Below are positions 4 to 61,700 of a stretch of DNA of 64,000 nt, piece by piece. Numbering within the stretch: position 1 is the stretch's first letter; each line of letters opens with the position of its first letter. This stretch comes from Eunapius fragilis (taxonomy: Eukaryota; Porifera; Demospongiae; Spongillida; Spongillidae), in NCBI GenBank assembly GCA_963681505.1, contig OY811972.1:2144163-2208162 (forward strand), in the 5' to 3' direction. The notes beneath the pieces were generated by a model, which saw nothing but the letters and a program-made list of their open reading frames with translations, made no database searches and had not been told where the DNA came from. A program made the translations under genes and the position numbers.

Positions 4-11776
<11,773 letters not shown>

Positions 11777-37200: not shown

Positions 37201-40200
37201 GATATATTTTGTAGTAGAAGCCTTACGCGCCCATATACATGCATGTATGTATAAGCAAAGTTGCTTTAGATTTTTTTGTAGTTGATTTTTATGGGTATTG
37301 TGCAGCTAATGCCATTTAAATGATTGCTAGGCCAGCTGTGATTCTTGTTCTGCACTCACTGTAATCCCTGACTCCATGCACCAGTGATGCTTCTTATTTT
37401 AATCACTGATCACTTAATAGATTTTAATTGTCAGGTAGTTAGTCCATAAGTTATGCACAAGGTTCACTCTGGAGACCTTCATTACAGTGTTGTCATGCTG
37501 ACTGATGTGGTTGCTAAGGCTGGTGGATATTCCCTAATAGACATGCATGTAATGAAGAATCAAGCTATTCTTTGACTAGGTTTGTGCTGTTGTCAATATT
37601 GCAAAAAATCTAGGGTCTCAGATTCCATATACATATCAGAACATCCAGCTATAGCTGATATTTGACTTCAAGCCCTGATGTCCCTGGAACATTCACTCTG
37701 CTACGACGTTTAAATCCAAGCTAGGTATCTAGGGGGTACTAGTGCTGTGCCATAACAATAGGGATATATAATACAACTGCAAGTACATTTGCTTGATGCA
37801 GCTCCAGAGGCTGCCTATACCTTTCTATAAACATAAGCAAAGAGAGGGCACAAAAAATACTGTAGAATTGACATGGAAGTTTGTCACCTGCACGATGTAT
37901 GTGAGTGCATTGTGCAGATTGACAAGAGCATTAAATGGTGGGGGTGTGAAATATTGCTATTGTACTTTTAAAGCTTAATAGCACGCCCTAAATTAATTAG
38001 CTGGCCTGGTGAACCACTCCTTTCCACTAGCTTGAGGGCATGAAGTGTTACAAAACCAGCGGTGTATAAGCATAGCACCATATTTACTGGTCAATATGCA
38101 TTAACATCTTACTCTTATTAACAACTATTTGATACTAGCATTTGAAGTCATTGCTTGCAGGAGCTACACTATTAGCTGGGCTTTGGGGATACATGGCTGC
38201 ATCCTCCTCAGAGTGAAATGCCACACCATGCAAGGCCTGAATACTGGTATATGGTGTCCTTTTTGCTTGCTCTATTATAAGACATGCGTTTTTCACACTC
38301 TGCAATGCAGCTGAACGTGTTGGCAATGGTACTCCATTGTACGTGTCATGATTATTCATAGAAAACAGGCAGCCCTTTCAGGCCGAAAACAGCCGGCCGC
38401 GCTTAGTGGACGACATAAACCAACTACTTGAAGCTTTCACATTGCCTGTATGTCAAACTTATATGTGGGAAAATTGGCAGCTACGTGCAATTCGCGCATC
38501 TTTCATACCTATTCGATCGTGCCGTACCTCATATGCCTATGAAAACGTGGCGCGTGTATTAATTGGAAAGCGTAATTTATCGTTTCAGGTGTGTGTCTTG
38601 AAGCCAGATGATTGCTGGTACTACTGCATATGTTTATAGTAACACCAGATGTAAGCATCTTGCAAGGCACATCGTTGAACATATGATGTCGATAATGAGG
38701 CTAACCGCCATGATTTTTACACCATATACCGTAACGCTCTAATTATCAAACTAAATGTCCAGCCGCAAACAGCCGTGTGAGTTGTGGTCTTTGTTGTAGC
38801 GGCGCTGCGAGGCAGTTGACCTTCGGCCTCAAATCTGTTCATCAGGCTCTGGCAACCCATTGTTCTTAGGCGGCTGTCTGGGGCCTTCGCACGTGGTGCC
38901 CATACCCCCTCAGACTGCTCGCAACTCAAAACGCTTAGCCGGGGCCTTCACTGTGGCTTGATCGTGAAGCCTACACTCCCTCGGCACGTTCCTTACATTG
39001 CTTTCCGACGGCAGGATCTCCTTGTCCTCCCCGGCGCAGGCTCCTACGGATGACTCTAACTAATCAGGGGGCATCCACATGGTCGCTGACCATTCTCCCT
39101 CTGACTCTGTAGCACATGCCTTCACCCGCTTATTGGAAGGGGTGACTCCTCCCCGGTGGTATAGAGGGGTTGCAGTGTCATCCCGGGAAGGTTGCCGCCA
39201 TGTTTGTTTGGTGTCCTAACTATTAAACGTCATCGTTTATAAATGCGTGTCACGTACGTGAACGTACGTGCTCGACACTTATTGAAAAAATCAATGGTTA
39301 GGGCACCAAAAAACATGGCGGCGATTGTTACTGCTATTGTTATGAACCTTCCCGGGATGACACTGCAACCCCTCTATAGCCCTCCCCGGCGGCCGGTTTC
39401 ACTACTAGCGGATTTGTCAGGGCCCTTTACATAGAGATCACACTCCATTCTCCTCTGCATGACGCGCATATAAATATGCCAACACATCTCGTAGGTACAC
39501 ATCCTCTCCTCCTTGTTCTTGAATTTCTTCCTCGGTGAGAAGATCACTTTTTCTGTCTTCTCGTGAGAGGGGGCTCCCGTCGTGGTGCGCACCCTTGTCG
39601 CCATTGTAATATATTCACAAACTGGCTCGTGACACACCAGACGGAGAGCACATATGACACACGAGCATACATTTATATACAATAACAACCGGTTTATCCG
39701 GTACTCGTCCCGCGCCCGCAATACGCATGCGCACATCCGATTGCACACATATCACAGACTCACACATAGAGCGCTGACTAAGGTAAACTGCCATATTAGA
39801 ACCGGTTTTTAAACGGACTGTACAAGTCAAACGCATCGTCTGGAGGACGTTTTAGCACCACCAAGTGTCACTACTGATGGATGCGCACCATACCATCGTT
39901 TTAAAAGTTTTCCAGCACCTTTTGTTTTGTATGTCCACTCGCACCTCTGAGGAGGGGGGGGGGAGGGGGGGGGGGGGGGGGGTTCGCGATGAGTGCCAAA
40001 TTAGAACTGGGGGTGTGTCGTAGCTTTTTTTATAGTTTCAATCGTACAGACAACCAGCAACGCCGCCAACATATCTAGAAGTATCCGAAGTGAAGTTCTA
40101 AACACACAAAAAAAATACATTTGCGTTCTCTGTCTGCAACTATGTCACTTTCTGTTAGTTCGAGGGGTAGTGATTTTAAAAACGCCATGCATTGCAAGAG

Positions 40201-43200
40201 CTAGCAAAAGCCCTCCTTTTCCCCATCTTTCTATTCATAAGTCATGAGACATCGATTTTAAGCTTAAAACTTTGTTATAAGTGGTTACGCGGAAGAGCTA
40301 CTTCAAGTCAAAGAGAGGCTTCGTGACCTCCATTGAAAATTACCGGAAGTGAGTACTAAATAAGCCATAGCTTGCATGGTGGAAATTGGCATCGCTAAGT
40401 TACGGTTATAACACCAATCTACGCAAGAAAGAATGAGTTTCAAATCCCTACCTCTTCTACAGCCTCCTGAGAATCGCTGGAATTCAGCAAAACAAAACTT
40501 GTTTACCTATACTTGGTTAAATTATTGTAATAAATACTATTGGAAAATTATTGATAGATGCGCGTATATCGGGTACACAATCGGCTATGATTTTTATGGC
40601 GTTCAGATCAGTGTTGACGTGTCCTGGGCACTGCAGTTTGGCTCTACATTTACCAAATGCTAGGCCTACTTCCTTTGACCCCACGAACGGGTCGGTTCTG
40701 TGGAGCGATATCGTTTACATAAGTCCATCGTGACATCTTTACTATTAACTGGGATAGGCGCTTTCCCTTTCGCTGCCAGCCATTTCTTCCACGCTTGGCC
40801 TCCAAGAAATAAGAGGTTTACTAACTAGCTTTCGTACGTACGTGAAAACAAATTAACTACTTAGGGGCGTAGTTCGCTAAAGGGTATTATCAACTGTGGT
40901 TATAGGCTGCGGTTATTCTGACCCCCCCCCCCCCCCCCTGTTCCAATAAGGCCAACCTGTTCTAATATGGCAGTTTACCTTATAGCAATTGTAATTGCGA
41001 GTACTGATGCGCTTGGATATAGTTTAGTAATAAGTAGACTGCAACAGGGTGCATAACCTTTTTGAAATTATTTCGACTATGATTACACGTCTAATCGATT
41101 TTCCAGGTTAATAGCACCTTATTAGAACGATTTTCTTCTGTTCCTCAAGTTTATATGCTAGTTTTTATTGTCCCTATATATTTAGCTTATCTGCTTATAA
41201 ATTAACACGTTATAATGCATTGTTTGAATAGCATGCCCTCAAGAATTCGAAAAAGCAACAATTAGCTGAACCAAAAAAGCCTGTGAAACCTCAAGGGAAA
41301 TCTGGTGGAAAATCTGGTGGAACGCCGCTCCACAAACTCCAATCAAGGCATGTACGATATTCAAAATGTCATGCTGCGAACGTCTGGAAAAGGGTGTACT
41401 TAAGTATTTAGGTCCGAAGATGGCACCCTGGGAACCATATAATCAGCTGGTGGAAGAGAGTACGTCTAGCAAGATTGATTAAGCGTGAGTTTACCAAATT
41501 ATTTACATCGCCACCGAGGGTATTTCAGTGTTGACAAGTAAATAAAAACATTCTCTAACGAGAGAGTTGTTGGTATATAGGATTGACCAATGGTGGTGTA
41601 AAAAGCACGGAAACAAGAGTGACAGAAATTTTACTCGAAAATTGAAATTGGCCTATATTTAGCACATTACTCAGGCATGCGCTGTTATTTTGTGAGCGTG
41701 CTAAATATAGGCCAAATTCAATTTTCGAGTAAAATTTCTGTCACTCTTGTTTCCGTGCTTTTTACACCACCATTGGTCAATCCTATATACCAACAACTCT
41801 CTCGTTAGAGAATGTTTTTATTTACTTGTTTCATAGGTTTTTTTTCACCGTAGGCAATTAGATCAAATTGTTGCAAGTCCCAGGTCACTTCGGCTCTCTA
41901 TGGCAGGTTAAACCTGGTCCTAGTTAGAGCGAATGCCAGAGCTCTGCTGTCCCGTTCAATGGCAACTGGATGTTAGTCTCCTCACCTTCTCCGTTCCAGT
42001 GTATTGTTTTTTGTTTAGTAAAATTGCGTAGCTTAAAACTGTAAATATTGTATATGTAGTATCATTTTCAATAAATAACTTTAATAATAATAATTATAAT
42101 TATATGAATTTGTAGTATTAATTATTAGTTGTCCTCGCCCGCGCCCTCGTCTCCTGCGGGGACGTCCTCCTCCTCGGCCTCCCCGCCATGCTGCGTTGAG
42201 CCAGGGTGGCAGTGGCCATGCAGGCCAGGGAGGGAGCACAGGCGGCGGTGGTGGCGGGGGCAGCGCTGGTGGTGCCGGCGGGGGTAGCGCTGGTGGTGCC
42301 GGGGGGGGGGGGGGGGGGGGGGGGGGGTAGCGCTGGTGGTGCCGGCGGGGGCAGCGCTGGTGGTGCCGGCGGGGGCAGCGCTGGTGGTGCCGGCGGGGGT
42401 AGCGCTGCTGCTGGTGGTGGTAGGAGTGGCGGGGCTTCTGGAGGTGGCGGGGTGAAGGGAAGGAGTCGGAGGATGTATGTCATCCTCTTCCTCCTCCGAC
42501 CCCTCTTGATAAAAAAAACCAGTTAGGTCTTCAGCTGCCATCTACATGTACGTGACAGAGACAGAGAGTATGATTTTAAAATTTTTTACCTAATTCTTTT
42601 TTCAAGCAAGTTTACACGTGAATCCACATAGAGTATATTATTAAATTCTTACCTCTTTTTTCAAAGTGCACTATAATTCAGCGGGTGCATGACTGACTTT
42701 TATACCTGCAAAGCCTTAACACGTGTGCAGACTGTGCTATAATTCTATTGGTCCAATTCCATCATATTAACGGCATGTGCTAAAATTTTATTGGTCAAAT
42801 TTGAAAATGCTCCAATCTAAACATGGAGGTGTAGCCTACATGAAGTAAAGCTGGATAGTGTGGGAACCCAGGAAGTGAACTACATGACTGCATGTAGATC
42901 TGGGATAACATGGCACCATGTAGATTGATAAGGATATGTTTTCAGGTGAGTGTGGACAAGGTCTGCAGCATTATGAGTGTGGGCAGAATGTCTGATTTTA
43001 CATAAATGTGAGAGTAGAAGTACCTTATGGTGGCAGATCTAGTAACAACCTTTTGAGCTAGCAATGGATGAGACTCACAAAAGGCATCATTTACTTCACT
43101 TAGAAGCTCACTATCCCTAAGAATAGCTTTTTCAAGACCACCATTATACTCCATTAGTGCATGAGATTTGAGTTCATACAAGGAGTAGCTATATGGGAGC

Positions 43201-46200
43201 AGGATATGGTTGCAGTTATTGTCATTTCACCTATAGTTCTCAGCCCTTGCAACTGCAATTATATTCATACAGTTGCAACACATGTACATGGCAAGACAGA
43301 TAAGGAAGCCTTCAAATAAGGAAGCCTTTTTATACATCAGATTAGTAAAACAATAGACACTATTACTGTACACACAGTTGAGTCACCATGCATGCTTTAC
43401 ATGTGAAGTGAATGGTTTTGTGCAGATCCGTGCTGTACATCGTCGGGCGGGCCCTACTACCGCGTTTGGTCAGGTAGAAGGGTGACAAGCCCGACCAACA
43501 CCGCCAGACTATGCTCTACAAATGTTGCATGCACAGCTTTTTAATGTTAATACAACATGCCATAACATACCTTTGGGTGGTAGTGGTAGTGCTGTGACCC
43601 CTGCGGTACCGCGTCCTCTCGGAAGCACATTTAGCCAATCGGACAGCGGGGTCATTCCAATACCGACTCCTTTTAGATGCTTTAATGGCAGCTGAATTGT
43701 CCTCGTATTTCTGCCTGTTAGCAGCGCGGTTCCCCTCGAGGTCCTCTTCATATCGCCGCCTTTTAGCAGCACGATTCTCCTCGAGGTCCTTTTCATATCG
43801 CCGCCTTTTAGCAGCACGGTTCTCCTCGAGGTCCTCTTCATATCGCCGCCTTTTAGCAGCACGATTCTCCTCGAGGTCCTCTTCATATCGCCGCCTTTTA
43901 GCAGCACGGTTCTCCTCGAGGTCCTCTTCATATCGCCGCCTGTTAGCAGCGCGGTTCCCCTCGAGGTTCTCTTCATATCGCCGCCTGTTAGCAGCGCGGT
44001 TCCCCTCGAGGTCCTCTTCATATCGCCGCCTTTTAGCAGCACGGTTCTCCTCGAGGTCCTCTTCATATAGCCGCCTTTTAGCAGCACGGTTCTCCTCAAG
44101 TTCCTCTTTATATCGCCGCCTTTTAGCAGATCGCTTAGATTCAATATCTGCGTTGTAGCTGTCGCGTACAGAGGCCTTCTTCTTTTCGGGATCGGCCTTG
44201 TAGAGCGCTCGGGCTTTAGCTTTGTTCTCGTCTTGCTTTTGGAGGTATTCCCTCGTTGCTTAGATCTCTTCTTTTGATTACGCGAAGGCATTTTTAGAAA
44301 AACAACTTCACTAGCCAAAGTAACAACTAAACTGCGATACACAGCCAGAAATATTTTCCTGTACCAGCCTGGTACCAATATTTAGTCAGGCTGGTACCAT
44401 ACATGGGCTATGCCTGGTACAAACGCCTGGATCAGGGCAGATAGAGCAACTTCCTGTCTCGGACTGTTCTTACCAGAGGTAATCAGCCCTGGTATCAGTC
44501 GCGTACAGCCATGGTACCAGGCAATAATCAGGCTGTTATCTCATTAAAAAATCCGCACGCACCCACGCAGCGCCGGTAATATACTAGCTACATTGTATTA
44601 TTCATATACGTGACCACAAAACAATATCAAACACAGTATACGTTTAAACAGTACAACATGTTGTTCCAATCATGCTTGAAAGTTAAAACGACTTCACTAG
44701 TTCTCTGGCGTTCCACCCTCCTTGTGCTCTCCTCCTGCACAAACTTGCAGCTTTCCAAACATTCATGTACAACAGAGACAGCTCGCCGAATAGAACAACA
44801 GTCCACAGTAAAAAGTGTTCTTGTAACAGTTATTAGAGGGCAGTCATATGAATTGAGGATCGGTTGTCCACTGGAAGCGCACAAGGTATCACAACCTTGA
44901 ACTAAACAGAACCTTCTGCCTGAGCTGAGTTGGCATGCCACTAAAAAGATGGCATATTTGGCCTGCAATTGTAACAAATTAGTACACTTCTGCGTGTATT
45001 GTGCCTCATACCTGACAAGAAGCTAGTTCTATAAAATCTCCCGACCTGACAAGCTCACCATCTTGTGATATGATCCCTTTATGAGGAGACACATCGTCAT
45101 CTGCAGTGCAGTGGAAAAGCTGCACAACGGTGGAGGGATCATTGGAGCTGAGGTCTTCAATCGTAGCATATGGTAGTCCAACAGTGTCTAGCTTAAGATT
45201 CTTCAGCACTACTGATGACCTTCCAACACGCTGCAACAATGACATGCACACATAAACGAATGCTGAATTCACATTAGACACATGATTTACCTTTCGCAAT
45301 GCACCCCGCTGATAAATTCTCCGTTCACTATTTAAGTCTCTCAAAGTGATGTTATTAAAGTAGTGCTGAACAACTGGAGAGGAATACAGGCTTTGCAAAC
45401 CTTTCCCACACCTACCATAAAAAGAACAAAAAGAATAAAAAATGATTATTTGGCGTGAAAGAACAAACAGCCAACCTACCTTACACCCTCCTGAGTACAG
45501 CCGATGTCACATATGTGGCGAATGTGTTGCTGGACCGCAAAATGACGACTAATGTCACGACTAGGTGCAAGTCGATTGCTATTGATATTCTGAGCCCTGA
45601 CACTTGCATTAAAGGATTCACATCTGTCAAAAAGGATTACATGTAAACTACAGTACATCATGAAAAAACACGTTACCTTTCTGCACTAAATGCTGAACTG
45701 GGTCCGAAGTCCTGCATGCAGCTCACCAAATGAAGGAGGAGATGTACCTTTGGCTTCATCAATAATTCTGGGAGGCAGTGCTTTGCAGTTAGCACAAATT
45801 CTTCACATATCCCTTCCCATTCCGTGCTTAGCCCCTCAGTGAAGTAATTGCAGTAAGCAATACGGAACACCTAGATATATACACAATTTTGGTACATGAA
45901 GGAAGCATAACACATGGTACTGTACCTTGGAAATGCTCAAAAGAACTTTCTTTTGAGCATCGTCTAGGTACGGGCTTAAAATGAACACAGCCATTTGAGC
46001 CCAGGCCTTGAAGTCTCTCCCGACAAATGACTGGTAATAATAGCAAACATTTCCATACATTCGCACTTTGAACCCTGAGGTAGAGAACGCTTTGACCCTT
46101 GCAAGAACCTCTTCCTTCTGCACTTTAGAGAGAGTTGGCATCCAGATTTTAAGCAAGTACTTGATAGAGCCAAGTACCAATGTGTGGAGCATTTCAAGTG

Positions 46201-49200
46201 GCATGCTCCTATACGGATATACGGTGTTTCACATAAATGCTGTCATCTCACTCACACATACCTGTACATATCCACATTAATGACTAACATCGGATTATCC
46301 ACAGCTCTTAAACCTAATGCTGTTTGCATGGCATTGCGCCTCTCCTGAGTGGGCTGTGAGCGTATATCAGCAATCTGCTGCAGGCATCGCTCCAGTGTTC
46401 TCGCTTCACACACAACATGTGGTGTGACCCACTTATCAGACTGCAACAAAACACATGTAATGACACATTCAAAGTTAGTCGAATATCATACCTCACACAA
46501 GCGGCAATACAGGTTGGCAGAACTCCCAAGATGGTTCAAAAGCTCTGATGCACGTGGATTGTCACAGATAATCAGAAGCAGGGGTGCTACAACCAATACA
46601 TTTTCATTGCTGTAAGCATCAAAGACTTCAAAACCTTCATTTTCAAGAGTTGCTAGCTCTCTTGCAATTGGTTCAGCCATCTCCAAAGGTGTGACACTGT
46701 CTGAAGAGCAAATGAAGTGGATGTTGACATGTTGCATGTTTTCCTTTCTTGGAAGTCCAGCCAGGAGAAGGTAATAGCTCTCAAATTTGTGCCACTTCTT
46801 ACTCCTATTCCCACTAGTGTCATCTGAAAAGAGAATAAGAGGCACCATTACAACTTTCCGACCAGCTGCCTTCTCTTTCATGGGATGTGGTGTCAGATAC
46901 TGCACTGTAACCTATAAAATGATGAGAGCTTTAAATTGTGATTCAGTCATGTACAAAATCATGTGGCATTACCTCTGAATCAAATCGTTCAAACCTATCC
47001 TCCTCTCCATGCCATCTCACTATGCACTGTGGAGCATCAGCTAATCCATGTATGCAGGAAATAGGTAGCTCCATGTTTCCATACAGAACTGCAGCATCCT
47101 GAGTCAGGGTGATTGGGGGACCTTCACACATCCTATTGAACTGAGCACCATCAAGCAGAATATCAATTGCCACAAATATATCTGTTAATCCTTCCTAAAA
47201 GTATAAAAGAACTTGTCTGTAATGGTTACAAAAAAACCATTAATGGTTACAAAATAAAACCATACCTGTCGAAAAAATTTTGTCACCAAACCCTTTGTGG
47301 ATCCCAAATAAGGATGCTCAAATGAGACTACATCCCTAACAAATATAGAAGCTCCACAGGGCAGATTAACCATAGGGGTTCTAAATCGAGGATCTGTGTT
47401 CCAGCGACGTCCATGATACAACTCCCTAAAAGGATGGTAACCATTAGTTACAGTATCTTGTGTGTAGAGTCACATACGTATAATGACCTCCTGTACGAAC
47501 AGGAAAGCGTGTTAAAATATTTGACGTTTTTGGATTAGCGAGACCCCTCGCCACAATTTCGGTTAAAGAGATCATATAGAATGGAGTGTGTTTTGCTGTG
47601 AAGCACTGCAGCATATATGGTATTCTAAATTATATGTGGTGTGCAGGAATGCATACCTGTCGTGGCGGTAGCAAGCCAGGTAGTTTGAATGCCTTCAGCT
47701 GTTTTATGCTAGGAACAACAGCACACCCACTCTCCTTCAAGAGATACAGAATAAATGCCAGGGTAGACTCCCCCTGTGAGAAGATGTATTACAATTGGCC
47801 TGCTACAATCACAGCTGACTACTTACGACTGGTCTTGGGCCATGTATCATTAAGTACAAGAGAGCAAACACCTTGTTTGGAAATGGATGGTAGCCATTAT
47901 CATCCAAGAATAGCAACTGTTCTTCACAAAGTAAATCATCCAAATCTGAAGAATAAGAAATAAACATTTTTTTAATTTTAAATCTATGGTATCCAACCTT
48001 CTTCCTCATCATCAATGGTGTCACCTGTAAACTCAGTTTCTTGTTCGACATGTACATCTAAATCACTTGTTCTGTCTTTTTAAAAAAATATTCTATACTC
48101 AAAAGGAATTGATACATTCAATTAAACATTTACCAACGAAGAAGTGTTCATCCTCATTGGATTGGTATACTATATCCTGATCATTTACTCCCTGTAAAGC
48201 GTATTGTAAACTAAAATACAAAAACACTTGTAATTATATCAAACTTACGGCCTCTAAGGGAAACAAAGTTGGTGGTGCGTCATCGCCTTCGTCGAACAGT
48301 TTATGCGATGCGCTAGACAGATGACGTGACAAGTTGTACTGTGTGGAAAACGTGGTATCGCATATGTGGCACCGAAATACTATATAATGGTGGTAGTAAA
48401 CATTCGATTAAAATTTGCTCAATAATGTATGGACCTTACCGGCTAATTCACGGGTACCAGTGAACGCTTTACCCCCACGGTGTCTCTTCGCCATTTCAAT
48501 TTTAACCCCTTGATTTTCAACCACGCGGACAAATTATTGCGAAAATGGCTTCTTTACCTCATTCTCCAGTGCTTACCCCTGGTAGCAGCAGGTTAGATTT
48601 TTACCATCTACATTTTTGTAACCAAACACAGTTAATTGAATAGCTAGCCAAAATGCCGTGTTAATTTATGTATGCATTTTTTTGTATTCATTCTACACAT
48701 TTGTATTGGTTTATTGTGTGCTCATTAATGCGACTCATTTCTAATCGAATTCAGAGGTTCAGGACGAGGTCAGATTGTAACTCAGTCTCTTGGTGATGGG
48801 AGGTAAGAGTACTATGTCTCAGTTTTTTGTGCATGAATAACCAATCTCATAGCTGACCAAAATGGATTTGTATTGTCTAATATGCTGTTATCTGACCATA
48901 ATGCCTTCATGCACGAACTATAGAGGACGAGGTCAGACCACAATGCAGCCTCTTGGTGATGGAAGGTAAGAGTACAAGAAACACGATGTATCAGCTCTTT
49001 GTGACTAACCAATCCTAGTTCAGGACATGTGTTAGGTCTCTGCCCATACATGTAGCATGATTTTATTTTGTATTGACCAAAATGGCATTCATGCATTTGT
49101 AGAGTCTAGTATTGCTGGTCACTGGTATAATGCCATTCATGCACCATATCTATAGAGGACGAGGTCACACCACAATGCAGCGTCTTGGTGATGGGAGGTA

Positions 49201-52200
49201 AGCGTAAATTTAGTTAATGGTAAGGAGCTCTAAAAGCTCAACTAATAACTTTTACATTATGTTATATAGTCATGTGTCCAGTCAAAACTCTTGTCAGCAA
49301 GAACCAGTTGCAACGCTTTCTAGTGTCCTGGCTGAGTTCATAAAACTTAAAGAAAGCACAGATCGGCATAACCAAACCATGGCTGAGAATTATGCTCAAC
49401 TAGCCCAAAGCTACAAAAACGTCTGCACATTTGTATCAGAACTTGGAGAACAGACGTTTCAAGTGGAAACTAGTCCCTTTAAGGTATGCAATATTACTAT
49501 GGAACACCACTTACTGAAATATATGTGTACACAGGATGACTTGATTGCTGAGGCAGGGATCTTGTTCTGTAACACTCTAAGTAGAGAACCTAATAAGAAG
49601 GATGTGAAAGTATGTATGAAATTTTTTTCCTATTATATCTGAGACAATTTAACTTCAGGAAAGTGTTACAAAGGTACTGGGACCAAAACTTTCACAGTCT
49701 ACTAGAAAAGTGAAAAAATGTATAACCTTCTGCTCTAAACGCATCAGTGATCTCAGATCAGAAGAAAGGCGAAGGGTAGGTGACATGCAGAGTTTGAAAT
49801 TTAAATTGTGCATATATTACCTAAATTTATTTCAAGGTATTGGGACAAAAACCATATGAAGCGTATGCCCAACTTACCACAGATGAATTTGCTGAAAGAT
49901 TTTCAAACTATGTAAAAGCAGGCAGCAGACATCTTCCTGTATACAAGATCAACCTAGCTGTTCTGGTGAGATTTATAATTATAATTGATCCAAGTAATGA
50001 ATACATATTCTCACTACAGCGCAAGTTTGTTCGCACTAATTCTACTTGCAAGGAAAACACATTCAAACATTTCAATCAATGGTTGCTAGATACATTTACC
50101 AGAGGAAAACCATCCCAAGAGGAGATTGATAATCTGGTAGCTGAGGACACCAGTATATCATATTTTTCCAGCAACCCCGAAAACACCAGCAATGGTGTTC
50201 AAAGGTCAGAAGAAATCAGACAGGCTGAGTATACTGCCGAGGACCAGCTGTATGCTAGCTATCCCCTACCATCAGAGGGGTTTAACTAATAACACTGAAG
50301 TTTGCCACTCAGTTGTACTCATGCTGCGCTGCTTTCATACACCTATATTTATCCATGAAATCCATAAAAATGATTTGAGACAAAAACATATTGCTTAATT
50401 GTGTAGTAACATATACCTGGCAAGGGTCAAGGCAGGTGGTGAGGTGAGGTGCACGTGGATGTGTCATTCTATGCATGCATGCATACAATATCCGTCCGCT
50501 GGTTGTAAAGCGCTAGAACCGTTGACTTAATATTAGTGTACAGTAAACCGTTGCTAGAATCAAGCGCTGACATGCACGCGGCAGCAGAACTGTCTCAGAC
50601 TGTTTTCAGGAGCATACCAGACTGGTGCCAGGTTGTAAACGAACTGTTACCAGTGGGTAATCGGACTGAAGCAGCAGTCTGGACCTGAGGTAATGTGCAG
50701 TCCTGGCTCAGAATGTGATATACCATCAGGGCCGTTTCAAACTGTTACGCAGCCCTGGAACAGGCTGTAGTACCCCACCAGATCTGAACCAGGCTGTATA
50801 CTTCTGGCTGTGTAGGAACACCAAATATTTTTTGTGCAGGTTAGAGTATTTATACTGCCTAAAATTATTAATAAATATCTATTACATACATTATTAAATA
50901 GAAGTTGATATGTGTCTATATGACATGTATGGATAACGTGCCGGTAAATTTCGAAGCGATTGGTACTATTCCCGTCCTTCAAAACCGTTCCTAGCTCGAG
51001 TTATACCTTCCTAAGAAGACGACGACGACGACGACGATGGAGAATTATTTTAGGACTGGGCACGAGAAACAGGAAATTGTTTGTTTCTCTATAACCACAC
51101 CGTTTTATGACACGGTACCAACGTAGAACTGTAGGTCGTTGTACCCTCATTCTATCGCAATAAAGAGATAAGCGATCCGTTTCTCCGTTGTCCCTCCAGA
51201 CGCTAGTGAAGTTTTATTAATGACATTCATCAACCCTCAATCAATCCTATATTGAACCTGCTGCCGCAGGTTCAGATTAGACTGTAGCCTCGTACCCAGG
51301 CCCTATGTTTATATTACAGTTACGGGAGCAAAAAATAGGCTCCCGTAACTTTAATATAAATGGCCTGAGGACGAGGCTAATTAGACTGGGGACCCGATTG
51401 ATGGGTGGTCCCCAGACTGTGTTGATTGATTGTACCGTACTGTTTAATTACCCTGTTAGTATAGTAACCCATTGTCAGACAGGTGGGGAAGCCGATTTAT
51501 GCACGATTATCGACTAAAAAAAAACCCTCCCGCCTCTCCCCCCCCCCCCCCCCCCCCCCACCCACGCTTAGAAAGTATTTTAAGAACTATTTATAAATCA
51601 TTAATTTATATATCATTACATACATACATCATTAAATGCATACTTATACATCATTATCATATCCCACCATTATACAGTTGGCTACATGCAAGTCTACATT
51701 AAATGCATATGGGACATTTTATAGCAAAACCAGGCTTGTGCTTTTTTCAATAAAACCACTATAAAATAGCGTCCATTTCAAACCCACATATCCTCCGAGC
51801 TACACGACCCACGTCCTTCATATTTTTAGCGAGTTCTGTATTCTATGAGCCTTTTACATTCATTCATACATAAGTTCGGGGTTACAAAGACGTATAACGT
51901 AACAAAGGAGCGTCTCTCCAGCGTCTAAACGGTCCTGTTACTATCGGAATCTGCAGATAGTTGCATGATTATCTATAATCAAGATTTTGATGATCAAAGT
52001 CAGAGCAATTTTCCCAGTCGTTTCGCGCCTTAATTTAGAAGAGAAAACTTAACGAAGGAACGTCTCTCCGGCGTAAAAATTGCGACGTACTCAATGAAGT
52101 TCGGAATCTGCAGATTGTTGATTTTACTTAATCTATAATCAAGATACTGATGATCAAATTCAGAGCAACTTATCCGGTTGTTCTTGCCATTCTAGAGGTT

Positions 52201-58009: not shown

Positions 58010-58185
58010 GGTGTCATAGTCGCCAATGGCTCCCCTAAATTTTGACTCTCCAGTCATTCGCGCGTAGGCAATATGACTCCCGGTCATATATGCCTAGGCG
58101 TATTTGACTCCCCAGTCATTCACGCCTAGGCATATATGACTTCCCCCAGTCCACACCTAGGCATATATGACTCCCGGGAGTTATT
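58010..58185. repeat. Short degenerate repeat, TAGGCATATATGACTCCC type
   Basis: About five imperfect copies of a 30-35-bp unit containing CCTAGGCATATATGACTCCC and CCAGTCATTCACG lie in alternating spacing. Confidence 0.7.
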
Positions 58186-58194
58186 ACAGACTTA

Positions 58195-58425
58195 TAATTA
58201 CATTGTACATACAAGTATATGATACCTACACACGAAGTCACAACCTGGTGCCAAACATTTGGCATTGGAACAATAGGATGCAGCTTTGCATTAGACTTTG
58301 AAAACTTAGCGTTAGTTCTCTGACACTTGTCGCAGTGTTGTAATATCCTAATATCTTCATTGATGTTTTTCCAGAAGAAACGGCTGGATATTTTTTGAAT
58401 GGTTACATGCAATTTGCGCATATTT
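58195..58425 (-). mobile_element. Retroelement integrase zinc-binding fossil
   Basis: The fragment shows SRFFWKNINEDIRILQHCDK then CQRTNAKFSKSNAKL, the H2C2 zinc-binding region that precedes the integrase core in Ty3/gypsy-type elements (and in Ginger-type transposons derived from them). It is a short broken piece without terminal repeats. Confidence 0.6.
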
Positions 58426-58693
58426 CATACCTATTCGATCTTGCCGTACGTCATATGCCTATGAAAACGGGGTGCGTGTATTAACTGGAAAGCATAATTT
58501 ATTGTTTCAGGTGTGTGTCTATTGCTGGTACTACTGCATATGCTTATAATAACACCAGATGTAATCATCTTGCAAGGCACATCATTGAACATATGGTGTC
58601 GATAATGAGGCTATCCACCACATCATATACCGTAACGCTCTAATTATCAAACTAAATGTCCAGCCTCAAACACAGTGGCCGCAAACAGCCGTG
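58408..58693. repeat. Dispersed repeat of about 290 bp, copy 2
   Basis: Second copy of the 38400-38785 repeat, same orientation. It abuts the integrase fossil on its left and the gypsy fossil on its right. Confidence 0.8.
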
Positions 58694-58719
58694 GATTAAG
58701 TTAAGGCAAATCAAAATCA

Positions 58720-61700
58720 GTGCTAATCAAACCACAATGTAATTTGCAACATGCACCACCATGAATATTTAAGCAGCTGAAATACACTTTTAATTTGTAG
58801 ATCACTCAAAGGATACAAAAACACCAGGAGCATGATACATGAACTCTGACATGGAGGGAACGGCTTCAGTAACAACCGGGTCGATGGTACGCTTGACCTC
58901 GTTATGACCGTGAGTGCAACTAAACCGCAATAGAAGAATAGTGGATGGCAGTGGTCGGAAGAATTTAGCCAAGCCTTTTTAGCAGCCAAAGGCATATTCT
59001 AGCACATTATAATCCAAAGTTGTCTACAGATGCATCGAGTTATGGTGTAGGGGCGGTGTTGACGCAAGTGAGCGAAGAGGGAACAGAAAGGCCAGTAGCG
59101 TTTGCGTCACGGACGTTGTTGGGTGCAGAACGTCGAAACTATGCACAGACAGAAAAGGAGGCCTTACCTATCATCTTCGGGGTAATAAGATATCACATGT
59201 ATTTGTATGCATGGATGAAAAATTCTTCTGTTAACGGTTCACAAACGAAGACTGGATTACCTGGATGGATTGTCCAGACAGCCGTTGAAATGTGAAGAAC
59301 ACGAAGAAGATGAAACAGAAGCTAGCACATCAACATGGCACACAAATAGAAACGCTCCCGGTAACTGCAGGACAGTTGCCAAAAGAAAGCCGACAAGACA
59401 GAGATTTGAGCAAGGTAATGAGTTACCCTAAATGGCTAGCCAAAAAAATGTTGCAGCAGAGTTACAATCGTATGAATTAAAGAAGACGGAGCTAACCATG
59501 GAAAATCACACCGTAGAATATTGAACTGTTAGTTAGTAAATTAGTAAAAGGTGTGATCACGTGAGTGCGGGAGTTAGTCTCGTGAGAGTTTTTTAGTGGT
59601 ATGGTGTGAGGCATAGTGATTGCTTCTGTTAGGCAAATACACTGCAGTTTCTGTCAGGCAAATACATTACACACACCGTGCTGTGGGGGATGCGAGTCAT
59701 AATATCTCGTAAGTTACAGGAGAAGTCCTATCGGAATTACATCATAACCATCCTGGTATGTCCAGAATGAAAGTCCTGGCGAGAAGTCATGTGTGGTGGT
59801 GGCCTATAACATGATCGGGACATTGAAGCATGTGGTAGTAGGTAATGCGAATGTTGTCAGGCCATAAAGCAGTCCATATCCCCGGCTCCAATGCAACCTT
59901 GGACGTGGCCAGAGAGGCCACGGCAAAGAGTTCACGTGGACTTTGCGGGACCGGTAGGTGGGAAAATGTGTGTGTTTTTTTTGTTGATGGATGCTCACTC
60001 TAAATGGCCAGAAGTTTACGAGATGACAAGTACAACAGCGCAAAAATGACGATCGAGATTCTTAGTCACATCTTTGCATCTATGGACTGCCAGAACAGTT
60101 GGTGTCTGATAATGGCCCTCAATATGTTGCAAGAGAGTTCGAAGAGTTCATGTTAAATAATGGAATAAAGAATAATAGTGCCCCCTATCACCCTGCGACA
60201 AATGGACTAGTGGAACATTTCGTGTAGTCATTCAAAAGAGCGATGGAAACAATGATGAACAGCATGGCAACATAGATTGTCTTCTTTTTTGTTAGCATAT
60301 CATATCGTAGTACACCACACTGTTCGGGGGCGTCTCCAACCTATTTTGGGCGTCATTTTGACGTTTCATTATAACCCCCCCTCCCCTTTCATAACACCAT
60401 TGATATCCAAGGTTGTGGGACCATTTGAAAATTTCAGTACAATTTGAAAACATCACGTGTCTGACCACCCTCCCCAACACGTCAAGATGACGTTATCTTT
60501 TCCAAAATAGTTAGGAGACGCCCCTTACTTATTTGCCCCTAGCCTCGGCCCCAGACCCAACGGACGCAGCTGCGGAGGGATTACATCACCGCTACGCGCA
60601 GTAGGGTCTGGTGATATTGGCAACAAATTCGTGGCCAACCAGGTAGGAATTTCATCCTGCCAATCAAATTGCAGCAATGCACTGATTAGCATTCTTCGCG
60701 TGCACACTCACAAAGAATCAAGACGTAATCACCCTAGCTGCTGAGACCTTGGATACAAAGACGTGTCTCCGAACAGCGCTCATTCATACAAGCCTTCTTG
60801 GACGATTATGATGTGTTTGTTTGCCTCCCAACCAGTAGTGGTAGTCTGGATACTCCCCGAAGTATTTGATAGATTGAGAGGGCTTGATAGCTATAGCATT
60901 GTGGTTGTTGTTGTCCTCTGAAAGCTCTGATGAGGGAACAGGTAGAAGCGCTTAAAGGCAGAGGGTCAAGAGCAGTATGTGTGGGGGACGCTTTATACGA
61001 AGAGCTAGAACACGACGAAATACAAGAAGGTCGCTATCAATTCGTTTTTTGCAGCTGTATTCCTCACGCATGACAAATCATTACGATTATTCATCATGTC
61101 ATAAACGTATTCACCCATTTATGCGTGTGACTAATTGTTAATTATGACATTCCTCGGGCCACGAATTTGTTGCTCAGTGTCCGCAGCTGCGTCCGTTAGG
61201 TCTGGGCCGAGACTAATGTGCCCCTTGTAGTCTTTTTCTACAGAAAACTGAGGACCAAGTTGGATCTCCTACGGAGCAGATTGTGCAAGAAGAACAAAAA
61301 GAGTGGCATGAGAAAAGTACGAGAGAGAGAGAGAGAGCTGAGCCAAATAACGTTGTGTGGGCAAGAAATTTTGGGGTGGGGGAGAGATGGATATGGATAG
61401 TGGAGTTAGCAGATGGAAGAATGTGGAGACGACATATTGACCATCTGAGAAGAGCAGAGGAGTGAGTAACAAAAATCAGGGGGGAGTGAAAGTGAAATAG
61501 AAGGTGAACAAATGATGCAGTCTGCCAAGGGAAAGATAAGCGTATAGATCTGGAGGAAACAGCGGGAGTACAGATAGAGCAGGACACGCTAGAAGGAGAG
61601 AATGAAACAGAAGGAAACGGACGAAAGGGGAATAACGGATGAGAACGAAACAGATAAAAAAAGGGAGATAACTAGAAAACCAGAGGTGGCAGTAGTTAGA

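What the first reader, a model, noticed from the sequence alone, without database searches (positions are those of the whole stretch)
44340..50812. Structurally whole two-gene Plavaka/tnp2-like transposon in an animal intron
Matching 15-bp inverted ends, subterminal repeats, and two divergent multi-exon genes with no broken exon. The core motifs ([22 protein letters not shown]) are, as I recall, best known from fungal Plavaka elements. An unbroken copy in an animal suggests recent activity or horizontal transfer.
Basis: partly seen in the sequence, partly recalled or inferred. Interest (0 to 1): 0.78.

Follow-up and report, generated by a model that had tools for sequence, protein, structure and literature searches.

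The report
Young two-gene TA-targeting animal transposon

Summary
Window 44340-50812 is a 6473-bp DNA transposon with near-identical 15-bp inverted ends, subterminal repeats and two divergent genes with open inferred exons: a 987-aa transposase with a C2H2 finger and a 327-aa partner. Empty sites show that insertion duplicated a 2-bp TA. A second full-length copy, 99.3% identical, lies at an unrelated site; five 3.3-kb derivatives share breakpoints: recent mobility. Relatives in the genome keep the catalytic residues under purifying selection; the partner gene lies head to head with the transposase in 9 of 9 places where both were found. The Plavaka profile PF18759 matches neither the transposase nor the relatives scanned, while a Plavaka-type control hits it at 2e-71; the exon-10 sequences hit the CACTA/tnp2 profile PF02992 weakly, below its cut-off. 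I place it in the CACTA-Mirage-Chapaev (CMC) group, near animal CACTA-related elements with 2-bp duplications, on a very long branch from three ordinary EnSpm copies of the same genome. It sits inside another multicopy repeat; an intron was not shown. Recent horizontal transfer is unsupported. Whether the lineage is already in Repbase could not be checked.

The parts
44338..44339 (.). left copy of the TA target-site duplication
   Evidence: empty sites L053-L056 have a single TA here
44340..44354 (+). left terminal inverted repeat CACAGCCAGAAATAT
44340..44600 (.). left subterminal repeat region (5 matches to CAGCCTGGTACCA with <=3 mismatches)
   Evidence: shuffle control in the same call
44627..48494 (-). 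transposase gene, 17 exons, 987 aa; start codon at 48494, stop ends at 44627
   Evidence: splice model; relatives by six-frame search and tblastn
48249..48379 (-). exon 2: C2H2 zinc finger (residues 20-44)
   Evidence: PF00096 1.2e-5, 25.9 bits, over its cut-off of 25.2
46492..46911 (-). exon 10: first and second catalytic Asp (D386, D473) and C(2)C (C492, C495); weak tnp2 match
45677..45870 (-). exon 13: H(3)H (H693, H697)
45480..45623 (-). exon 14: catalytic Glu (E717, in CESFN) and NRLAPSRD
   Evidence: by-eye alignment with FEHFNG of a local EnSpm protein
48495..48544 (.). 50-bp gap between the two start codons, presumably a shared divergent promoter region
   Evidence: promoter role inferred
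48545..50289 (+). partner gene, 9 exons, 327 aa, no Pfam family
48755..49197 (+). three short repeat exons (48755-48802, 48924-48965, 49156-49197) coding an RG-rich unit ending LGDG
50553..50812 (.). right subterminal repeat region (motif matches at about 50618-50635 and 50784-50796)
50798..50812 (-). right terminal inverted repeat (reads CACAGCCAGAAGTAT on the minus strand)
50813..50814 (.). right copy of the TA target-site duplication

Best explanation
A young, structurally whole autonomous DNA transposon of the CACTA-Mirage-Chapaev (CMC) group, from a TA-targeting lineage that has long lived in this animal genome. The transposase (N-terminal C2H2 finger, then a DDE domain with C(2)C and H(3)H) recognises the CACAGCCAGAA ends, cuts the element out and inserts it at a TA, which is duplicated. 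The partner protein (RG-repeat N-terminus, conserved C-terminal part) probably binds the subterminal repeats and assembles the ends, as TnpA does in plant En/Spm (recalled); the two genes are read outward from a 50-bp gap. Shown: ends, TA duplication by empty sites, recent copies, short derivatives with shared breakpoints at several sites, conserved triad, conserved head-to-head gene pair. Inferred: cut-and-paste chemistry, splicing, the partner's role, and that this copy still works.
For: Empty sites: the window flanks joined at one TA match 40 of 40 scored places across the junction at 97-99%; 4 of 4 fetched have a single TA, and 2 of 2 at a second insertion. 7 of 7 copies with both ends read have TA at both ends; TA is about 7% of dinucleotides here. 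C14 copy: 47 mismatches in 6452 aligned bases plus 47 gap columns, unrelated flanks. Five 3.3-kb copies share breakpoints at element position 2222 and at 5940 or 5951 and differ in flanks. Exon 10: 11 relatives 63-90% identical to the window, no stop in the stretches used; dN/dS 0.10-0.14 in the 3 of 11 comparisons where dS is not saturated, median pN/pS 0.29 over 66 pairs. D, D, C(2)C, H(3)H, E kept in most relatives that cover the sites. Partner gene head to head in 9 of 9 places (window and C14 included) where both were found within 15 kb. PF02992 weakly hit by 12 of 12 exon-10 sequences, best 4.4e-5, and by 3 of 3 near-full relatives, best 5.4e-6; hhalign to a local EnSpm protein 79.6%, E 1.5e-5.
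Against: PF02992 stays below its cut-off (17.8 and at best 26.2 of 28.6 bits). The hhalign match is 79.6%, not decisive, on a shallow alignment (Neff 1.7). The TSD is 2 bp, not the 3 bp of EnSpm in PMC12730594. Between the two young copies the transposase codons differ by 14 nonsynonymous and 6 synonymous changes: no sign of selection since they parted; the C14 copy has a stop at transposase codon 732 and a frameshift in the partner. The 3.3-kb derivatives are 96-97% identical to the window on the transposase side but only 86-88% at the right end, so they do not descend simply from this copy. 19 of 28 partner-gene clusters had no transposase in the partial list I used. L001 has the family's inner sequence but CA, not TA, outside. 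No transcripts, no transposition assay, no structure.
Confidence: 0.83

Rival explanations
1. A Plavaka transposon, either native to animals or recently acquired from a fungus.
For: The general build (DDE with C(2)C and H(3)H) is shared by the whole CMCT group, Plavaka included (PMC12730594, passages). A 2-bp TSD is compatible with Plavaka. Plavaka transposases are reported in Amoebidium, a relative of animals (PMC11244446, passages).
Against: PF18759 not matched, nor anywhere in the genome (its 14 control genomes also gave nothing, so that search alone says little); positive control at 2.3e-71; hhalign of A1 to the Plavaka-type fragment 0.8%. Termini are not TGT..ACA or CATCA..TGATG.
Confidence: 0.04
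2. An ordinary EnSpm/CACTA element like the others in this genome.
For: CAC..GTG termini, subterminal repeats, weak PF02992 match, hhalign to one local EnSpm protein.
Against: 150 PF02992 matches over the cut-off are listed for the genome (150 of 305 candidates scored), and none of those listed lies at the window or C14 copies; a tree of 12 exon-10 sequences and 3 local EnSpm separates the two sets by about 5.8 changes per column with 100/100 support, with a warning about long branches; TSD 2-bp TA.
Confidence: 0.25
3. A recent horizontal arrival from another phylum.
For: Two copies 0.73% apart and one copy with both genes open show recent activity.
Against: Relatives down to about 40% identity per exon in the same genome, with purifying selection and the same gene pair, fit long residence. 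No other animal or fungus could be searched; the viral and prokaryote collections gave nothing.
Confidence: 0.1
4. Two host genes (a domesticated transposase and its neighbour) rather than a mobile element.
For: Both genes are open and old relatives are under selection.
Against: Empty sites, TA duplication, several copies with unrelated flanks, the other full-length copy broken.
Confidence: 0.02

Closest known systems
TRC elements (SmTRC1 of Schistosoma mansoni and its animal and fungal kin; PMC1636069: outline, passages and section 5 seen)
   Same: Animal CACTA relatives with spliced transcripts, a Transposase_21 domain, a 2-bp TSD shown by paralogous empty sites inside repeats; their box A motif [LVI]-D-x-[LM]-H-x3-L-G corresponds to [10 protein letters not shown] here.
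   Different: TIRs start CCC, here CAC; box A has Glu for Asp here; SmTRC1 makes further proteins by alternative splicing, here there is a separate divergent gene; a 2-bp repeat flanked 7 of 14 SmTRC1 copies, here TA flanks 7 of 7 copies with both ends read.
EnSpm/CACTA transposons (including local PF02992 copies L050-L052)
   Same: CAC..GTG termini, subterminal repeats, homologous core around LPR, second Asp and C(2)C.
   Different: Below the PF02992 cut-off, SDDTSGN in place of N(V/I)DWF, 2-bp TA instead of a 3-bp TSD, very long separating branch.
ENS1_Cis of Ciona savignyi and CMC-NA MITEs (PMC6004678, passages); Spongebob of Hydra (PMC4298943, passages)
   Same: Animal CACTA elements with 2-bp TSDs; ENS1_Cis has CAC..GTG ends; Spongebob ends CCCAGCCAACATTGAC resemble CACAGCCAGAA.
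   Different: Transposases could not be compared; the passages say that Spongebob's exact transposase was hard to find.
Sly1-1 of Neurospora crassa (PMC4592977, passages)
   Same: CMC transposon with a transposase gene and a second gene of unknown function; the Chaetomium globosum homologues are adjacent and divergently transcribed.
Plavaka (PF18759; PMC12730594, passages)
   Same: DDE transposase with C(2)C and H(3-4)H, as in all CMCT.
   Different: Different core motif, termini and profile; no match.

Membership tests
[quoted passage not shown]
   D386, D473, C492/C495, H693/H697, E717; kept in most relatives that cover the sites. Assigned by motif alignment, no structure.
CMC/CMCT group | CA..TG termini and 2-5 bp TSD | tested here: met
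   CACAG..CTGTG and TA; definition from PMC12730594
Plavaka | match to PF18759 | tested here: not met
Plavaka | termini TGT..ACA (A) or CATCA..TGATG (B) | tested here: not met
   CACAG..CTGTG; definition from PMC12730594
EnSpm/CACTA | Transposase_21 PF02992 over its cut-off | tested here: inconclusive
   17.8 bits of 28.6, best relative 26.2; hhalign to a local EnSpm protein 79.6%
EnSpm/CACTA | CAC..GTG termini | tested here: met
EnSpm/CACTA | 3-bp TSD | tested here: not met
   2-bp TA by empty sites; animal CACTA with 2-bp TSD are in print (PMC1636069, PMC6004678)
Chapaev | 3-4 bp TSD with CAC..GTG termini | tested here: not met
   termini fit, TSD is 2 bp; definition from PMC4079192 (passage)
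TRC (animal CACTA-related) | 2-bp TSD | tested here: met
TRC (animal CACTA-related) | CCC at the TIR ends (suggested from 3 species) | tested here: not met
   CAC here
TRC (animal CACTA-related) | box A motif [LVI]-D-x-[LM]-H-x3-L-G | tested here: inconclusive
   [10 protein letters not shown] in the window protein, VEVLHTKLLG in L010: Glu for Asp; compared by eye with the motif
ESTA | TA TSD | tested here: met
   definition from PMC12730594
ESTA | groups with ESTA transposases in a tree | not testable with these tools
   no ESTA sequence on hand
Mirage | groups with Mirage transposases; 2-bp TSD (recalled) | not testable with these tools
   no Mirage sequence on hand

The most novel reading that the evidence does not exclude
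A separate, so far unnamed CMC lineage, as distinct as Plavaka or ESTA, defined by SDDxSGN transposases with a C2H2 finger, insertion at TA only, and a co-inherited head-to-head partner gene, that has persisted and diversified in animals beside ordinary EnSpm.
Probability: 0.35. Interest if true: 0.55.

Novelty: new member of a known kind. Interest (0 to 1): 0.36.

Why it matters
It gives a two-gene copy with both genes open, short derivatives and paralogous empty sites for an animal branch of the CACTA-like group, in which the role of a second protein is little known outside plants (recalled). The pairing of transposase and partner across divergent relatives makes the question 'does the second protein act in transposition?' directly testable. 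It also corrects a likely misfiling as a fungal-type element and removes the need to invoke horizontal transfer.

Tried and rejected
Plavaka: rejected on the PF18759 comparison with its control and on termini. Searches for relatives elsewhere: viral contigs and genome contigs gave none; these collections hold viral, bacterial and archaeal contigs only. PDB by sequence: nothing credible. Partner gene: no Pfam family at E below 0.19. Rfam on the window: no match at gathering scores. Papers: 56 hold the 11-mer CACAGCCAGAA; the 10 listed are unrelated by title. Searches with sponge, EnSpm and CACTA wording listed, by title and start of abstract, no description of this lineage; searches list only 12 of 64 and 12 of 132 papers. 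Considered and dropped: a 3-bp TSD (flanks ATA and TAG differ), host genes, contamination (the element is nested in a repeat with 40 or more other copies, on a 17.6-Mb contig).
Full report
What is there. The window lies at G000:C2:2144163-2208162 of a 219-Mb genome in 24 contigs that has 7 matches to the Wnt family PF00110, best 1.4e-39, with none in 14 control genomes; that Wnt is confined to animals is recalled. At 44340-50812 there is a 6473-bp element. Its ends agree in 14 of 15 bases (CACAGCCAGAAATAT and CACAGCCAGAAGTAT), with TA outside each. The motif CAGCCTGGTACCA, with up to 3 mismatches, occurs 5 times in the left 260 bp and 3 times in the right 260 bp, against 1 in the 5953 bp between and a shuffle maximum of 2.

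Genes. On the minus strand 17 exons from 48494 to 44627 encode 987 aa; on the plus strand 9 exons from 48545 to 50289 encode 327 aa; all introns are GT-AG and no exon has a stop. I chose the frames from the sequence, without RNA. Independent support: relatives elsewhere in the genome match piece by piece, breaking at many of the same exon borders, for the transposase and for the partner. The transposase has a C2H2 finger (PF00096 1.2e-5, over its cut-off) and a weak Transposase_21/tnp2 match (PF02992 0.002, 17.8 bits of 28.6). D386, D473, C492/C495, H693/H697 and E717 fit the CMC pattern and recur in most relatives that cover them. The partner has no Pfam family (best E 0.19; its relative in L060 none at E<=1); three of its short exons repeat an RG-rich unit.

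Mobility. Joining the window flanks at one TA gives a 194-bp query; 40 of 40 scored matches (of 1040 candidates) run across the junction at 97-99%, and the four that I fetched show one TA and no element. A second insertion gives the same with two fetched empty sites. Seven of seven copies with both ends read (window, C14 and five pairs) have TA at both sides. Of the first eight places of CACAGCCAGAA (L001-L008), four have TA outside (L002, L003, L006, L007); L001 has the inner sequence of a related family but CA outside; L004, L005 and L008 look like chance matches and have no TA. TACACAGCCAGAA occurs 67 times against 0 for the reversed control; by eye, 12 pairs of these face each other within 10 kb, not all of them inspected. 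So the usual target is a TA, duplicated on insertion.

Age and copies. The C14 copy (6478 bp) differs by 47 mismatches in 6452 aligned bases (0.73%) and 47 gap columns, and lies in unrelated flanks. It has a stop at transposase codon 732 and a frameshift in the partner; substitutions are 24 in 3948 coding and 23 in 2504 non-coding positions, and the differing transposase codons are 6 synonymous and 14 nonsynonymous, so no selection is seen since the copies parted. Five copies of about 3.3 kb share breakpoints at element position 2222 and at 5940 or 5951, with about 0.55-0.6 kb between that does not match this element, and sit in different flanks beside TA. They are 96-97% identical to the window on the transposase side and 86-88% at the right end, so they come from a related element or a recombinant, not simply from this copy. 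Position 2222 lies downstream of the codon for D386, which they therefore lack; they must have been moved in trans, or duplicated otherwise (inference). A search with the left 249 bp gave 25 matches, 8 of them (the window included) nearly whole at 95-100%.

Relatives in the genome. A search with the transposase gave 117 exon matches, 46 of 1353 candidates being scored, so a lower bound, down to about 40% identity. Eleven exon-10 relatives align at 63-90% identity to the window; dN/dS is 0.10-0.14 in the three of 11 comparisons without saturation, and pN/pS has a median of 0.29 and a maximum of 0.41 over 66 pairs. L020 was left out for a stop and L037 trimmed before one. The partner gave 47 matches. 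From 50 of the 117 and 32 of the 47 matches, typed into a script, I formed 38 and 28 clusters; 9 of 28 partner clusters (window and C14 among them) have a transposase within 15 kb and 9 of 9 are head to head, one of them 10.2 kb away; 19 have none in that list. The pair is therefore an inherited unit, not an accident of this copy.

Which family. Plavaka termini in PMC12730594 (passages) are TGT..ACA or CATCA..TGATG. EnSpm is nearer: CAC..GTG ends, PF02992 in 12 of 12 exon-10 sequences below the cut-off, hhalign 79.6% to a local EnSpm protein over LPR, the second Asp and C(2)C. But 150 PF02992 matches over the cut-off are listed for the genome (150 of 305 candidates scored), none at the window or C14 copies, and a tree of the 12 sequences with 3 of these separates them by about 5.8 changes per column with 100/100 support (the program warns of long branches). 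Animal CACTA relatives with 2-bp TSDs are in print: SmTRC1 (PMC1636069), ENS1_Cis (PMC6004678), Spongebob (PMC4298943); and a two-gene CMC element whose homologues are divergently transcribed is known in fungi, Sly1 (PMC4592977) (passages, and for PMC1636069 also the outline and section 5). I file the element under CMC and, in mechanism, with these animal CACTA-related elements; its exact branch is open.

Mechanism. Shown: ends, TA duplication, recent copies, derivatives with shared breakpoints at several sites, conserved catalytic residues, conserved gene pair. Inferred from the family: transposase binding to the ends, double-strand cuts, insertion into a TA with a 2-bp stagger. Inferred with less weight: the partner binds the subterminal repeats as TnpA does in En/Spm (recalled from plant work), and the 50 bp between the start codons hold a two-way promoter.

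Setting. The insertion lies in a repeat with at least 40 other copies that ends at about 51277-51282. Whether that repeat lies in a gene's intron was not tested. Horizontal transfer from fungi is not needed: divergent relatives of many ages live in this genome. I could not search other eukaryotes, so neither transfer nor prior description in Repbase is excluded.

Noticed in passing
window 43516-44259 and 50815-51280: The host repeat of the insertion: 40 listed other copies at 97-99% over 194 bp, right end near 51277-51282, with a hairpin GAACCTGC..GCAGGTTC at 51254-51273; next to it a minus-strand ORF of 45-nt tandem units ([15 protein letters not shown]). The window copy lacks one G near 44251 that four other copies have.
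   Followed up: partly
window 41534-41829: A 132-nt inverted repeat, 99% complementary, with 32 nt between the arms; possibly a young hairpin element.
   Followed up: no
window 39160-39378: A perfect 34-nt inverted repeat around 151 nt, beginning TATAGAGGGGTTGCAGTGTC, possibly a small transposon.
   Followed up: no
window 58116-59295 and 38482-38771: Retroelement pieces: integrase zinc-binding (PF17921) on minus and RT RNase H (PF17919) on plus; pieces of 38482-38771 recur at 58404-58672 at 91-96%.
   Followed up: no
G000 C20:1117375, 1142165, 1175309, 1206675: Four related copies (83-84% to the window's left end) spaced 25-33 kb in the same orientation, possibly an array duplicated together with its surroundings.
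   Followed up: no
G000, whole genome: 150 ordinary EnSpm/CACTA (PF02992) matches over the cut-off are listed, many in frames open for 800-1000 aa, so classic CACTA elements are abundant too.
   Followed up: partly
L002 and L003 (G000 C1:335072-338082 and C1:1057272-1060282): Two right-type ends of the related family with the same 20 bp outside; partner-gene pieces lie near both (in L002 with stops; C1:1056006 beside L003), so either one insertion was duplicated or a larger repeat carries it.
   Followed up: no
G000 C2:14690063-14695090: A relative of the transposase (14690063-14691898) and, 3 kb on, the weakest listed PF02992 match over the cut-off (14694866-14695090); perhaps two neighbouring CMC elements.
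   Followed up: no
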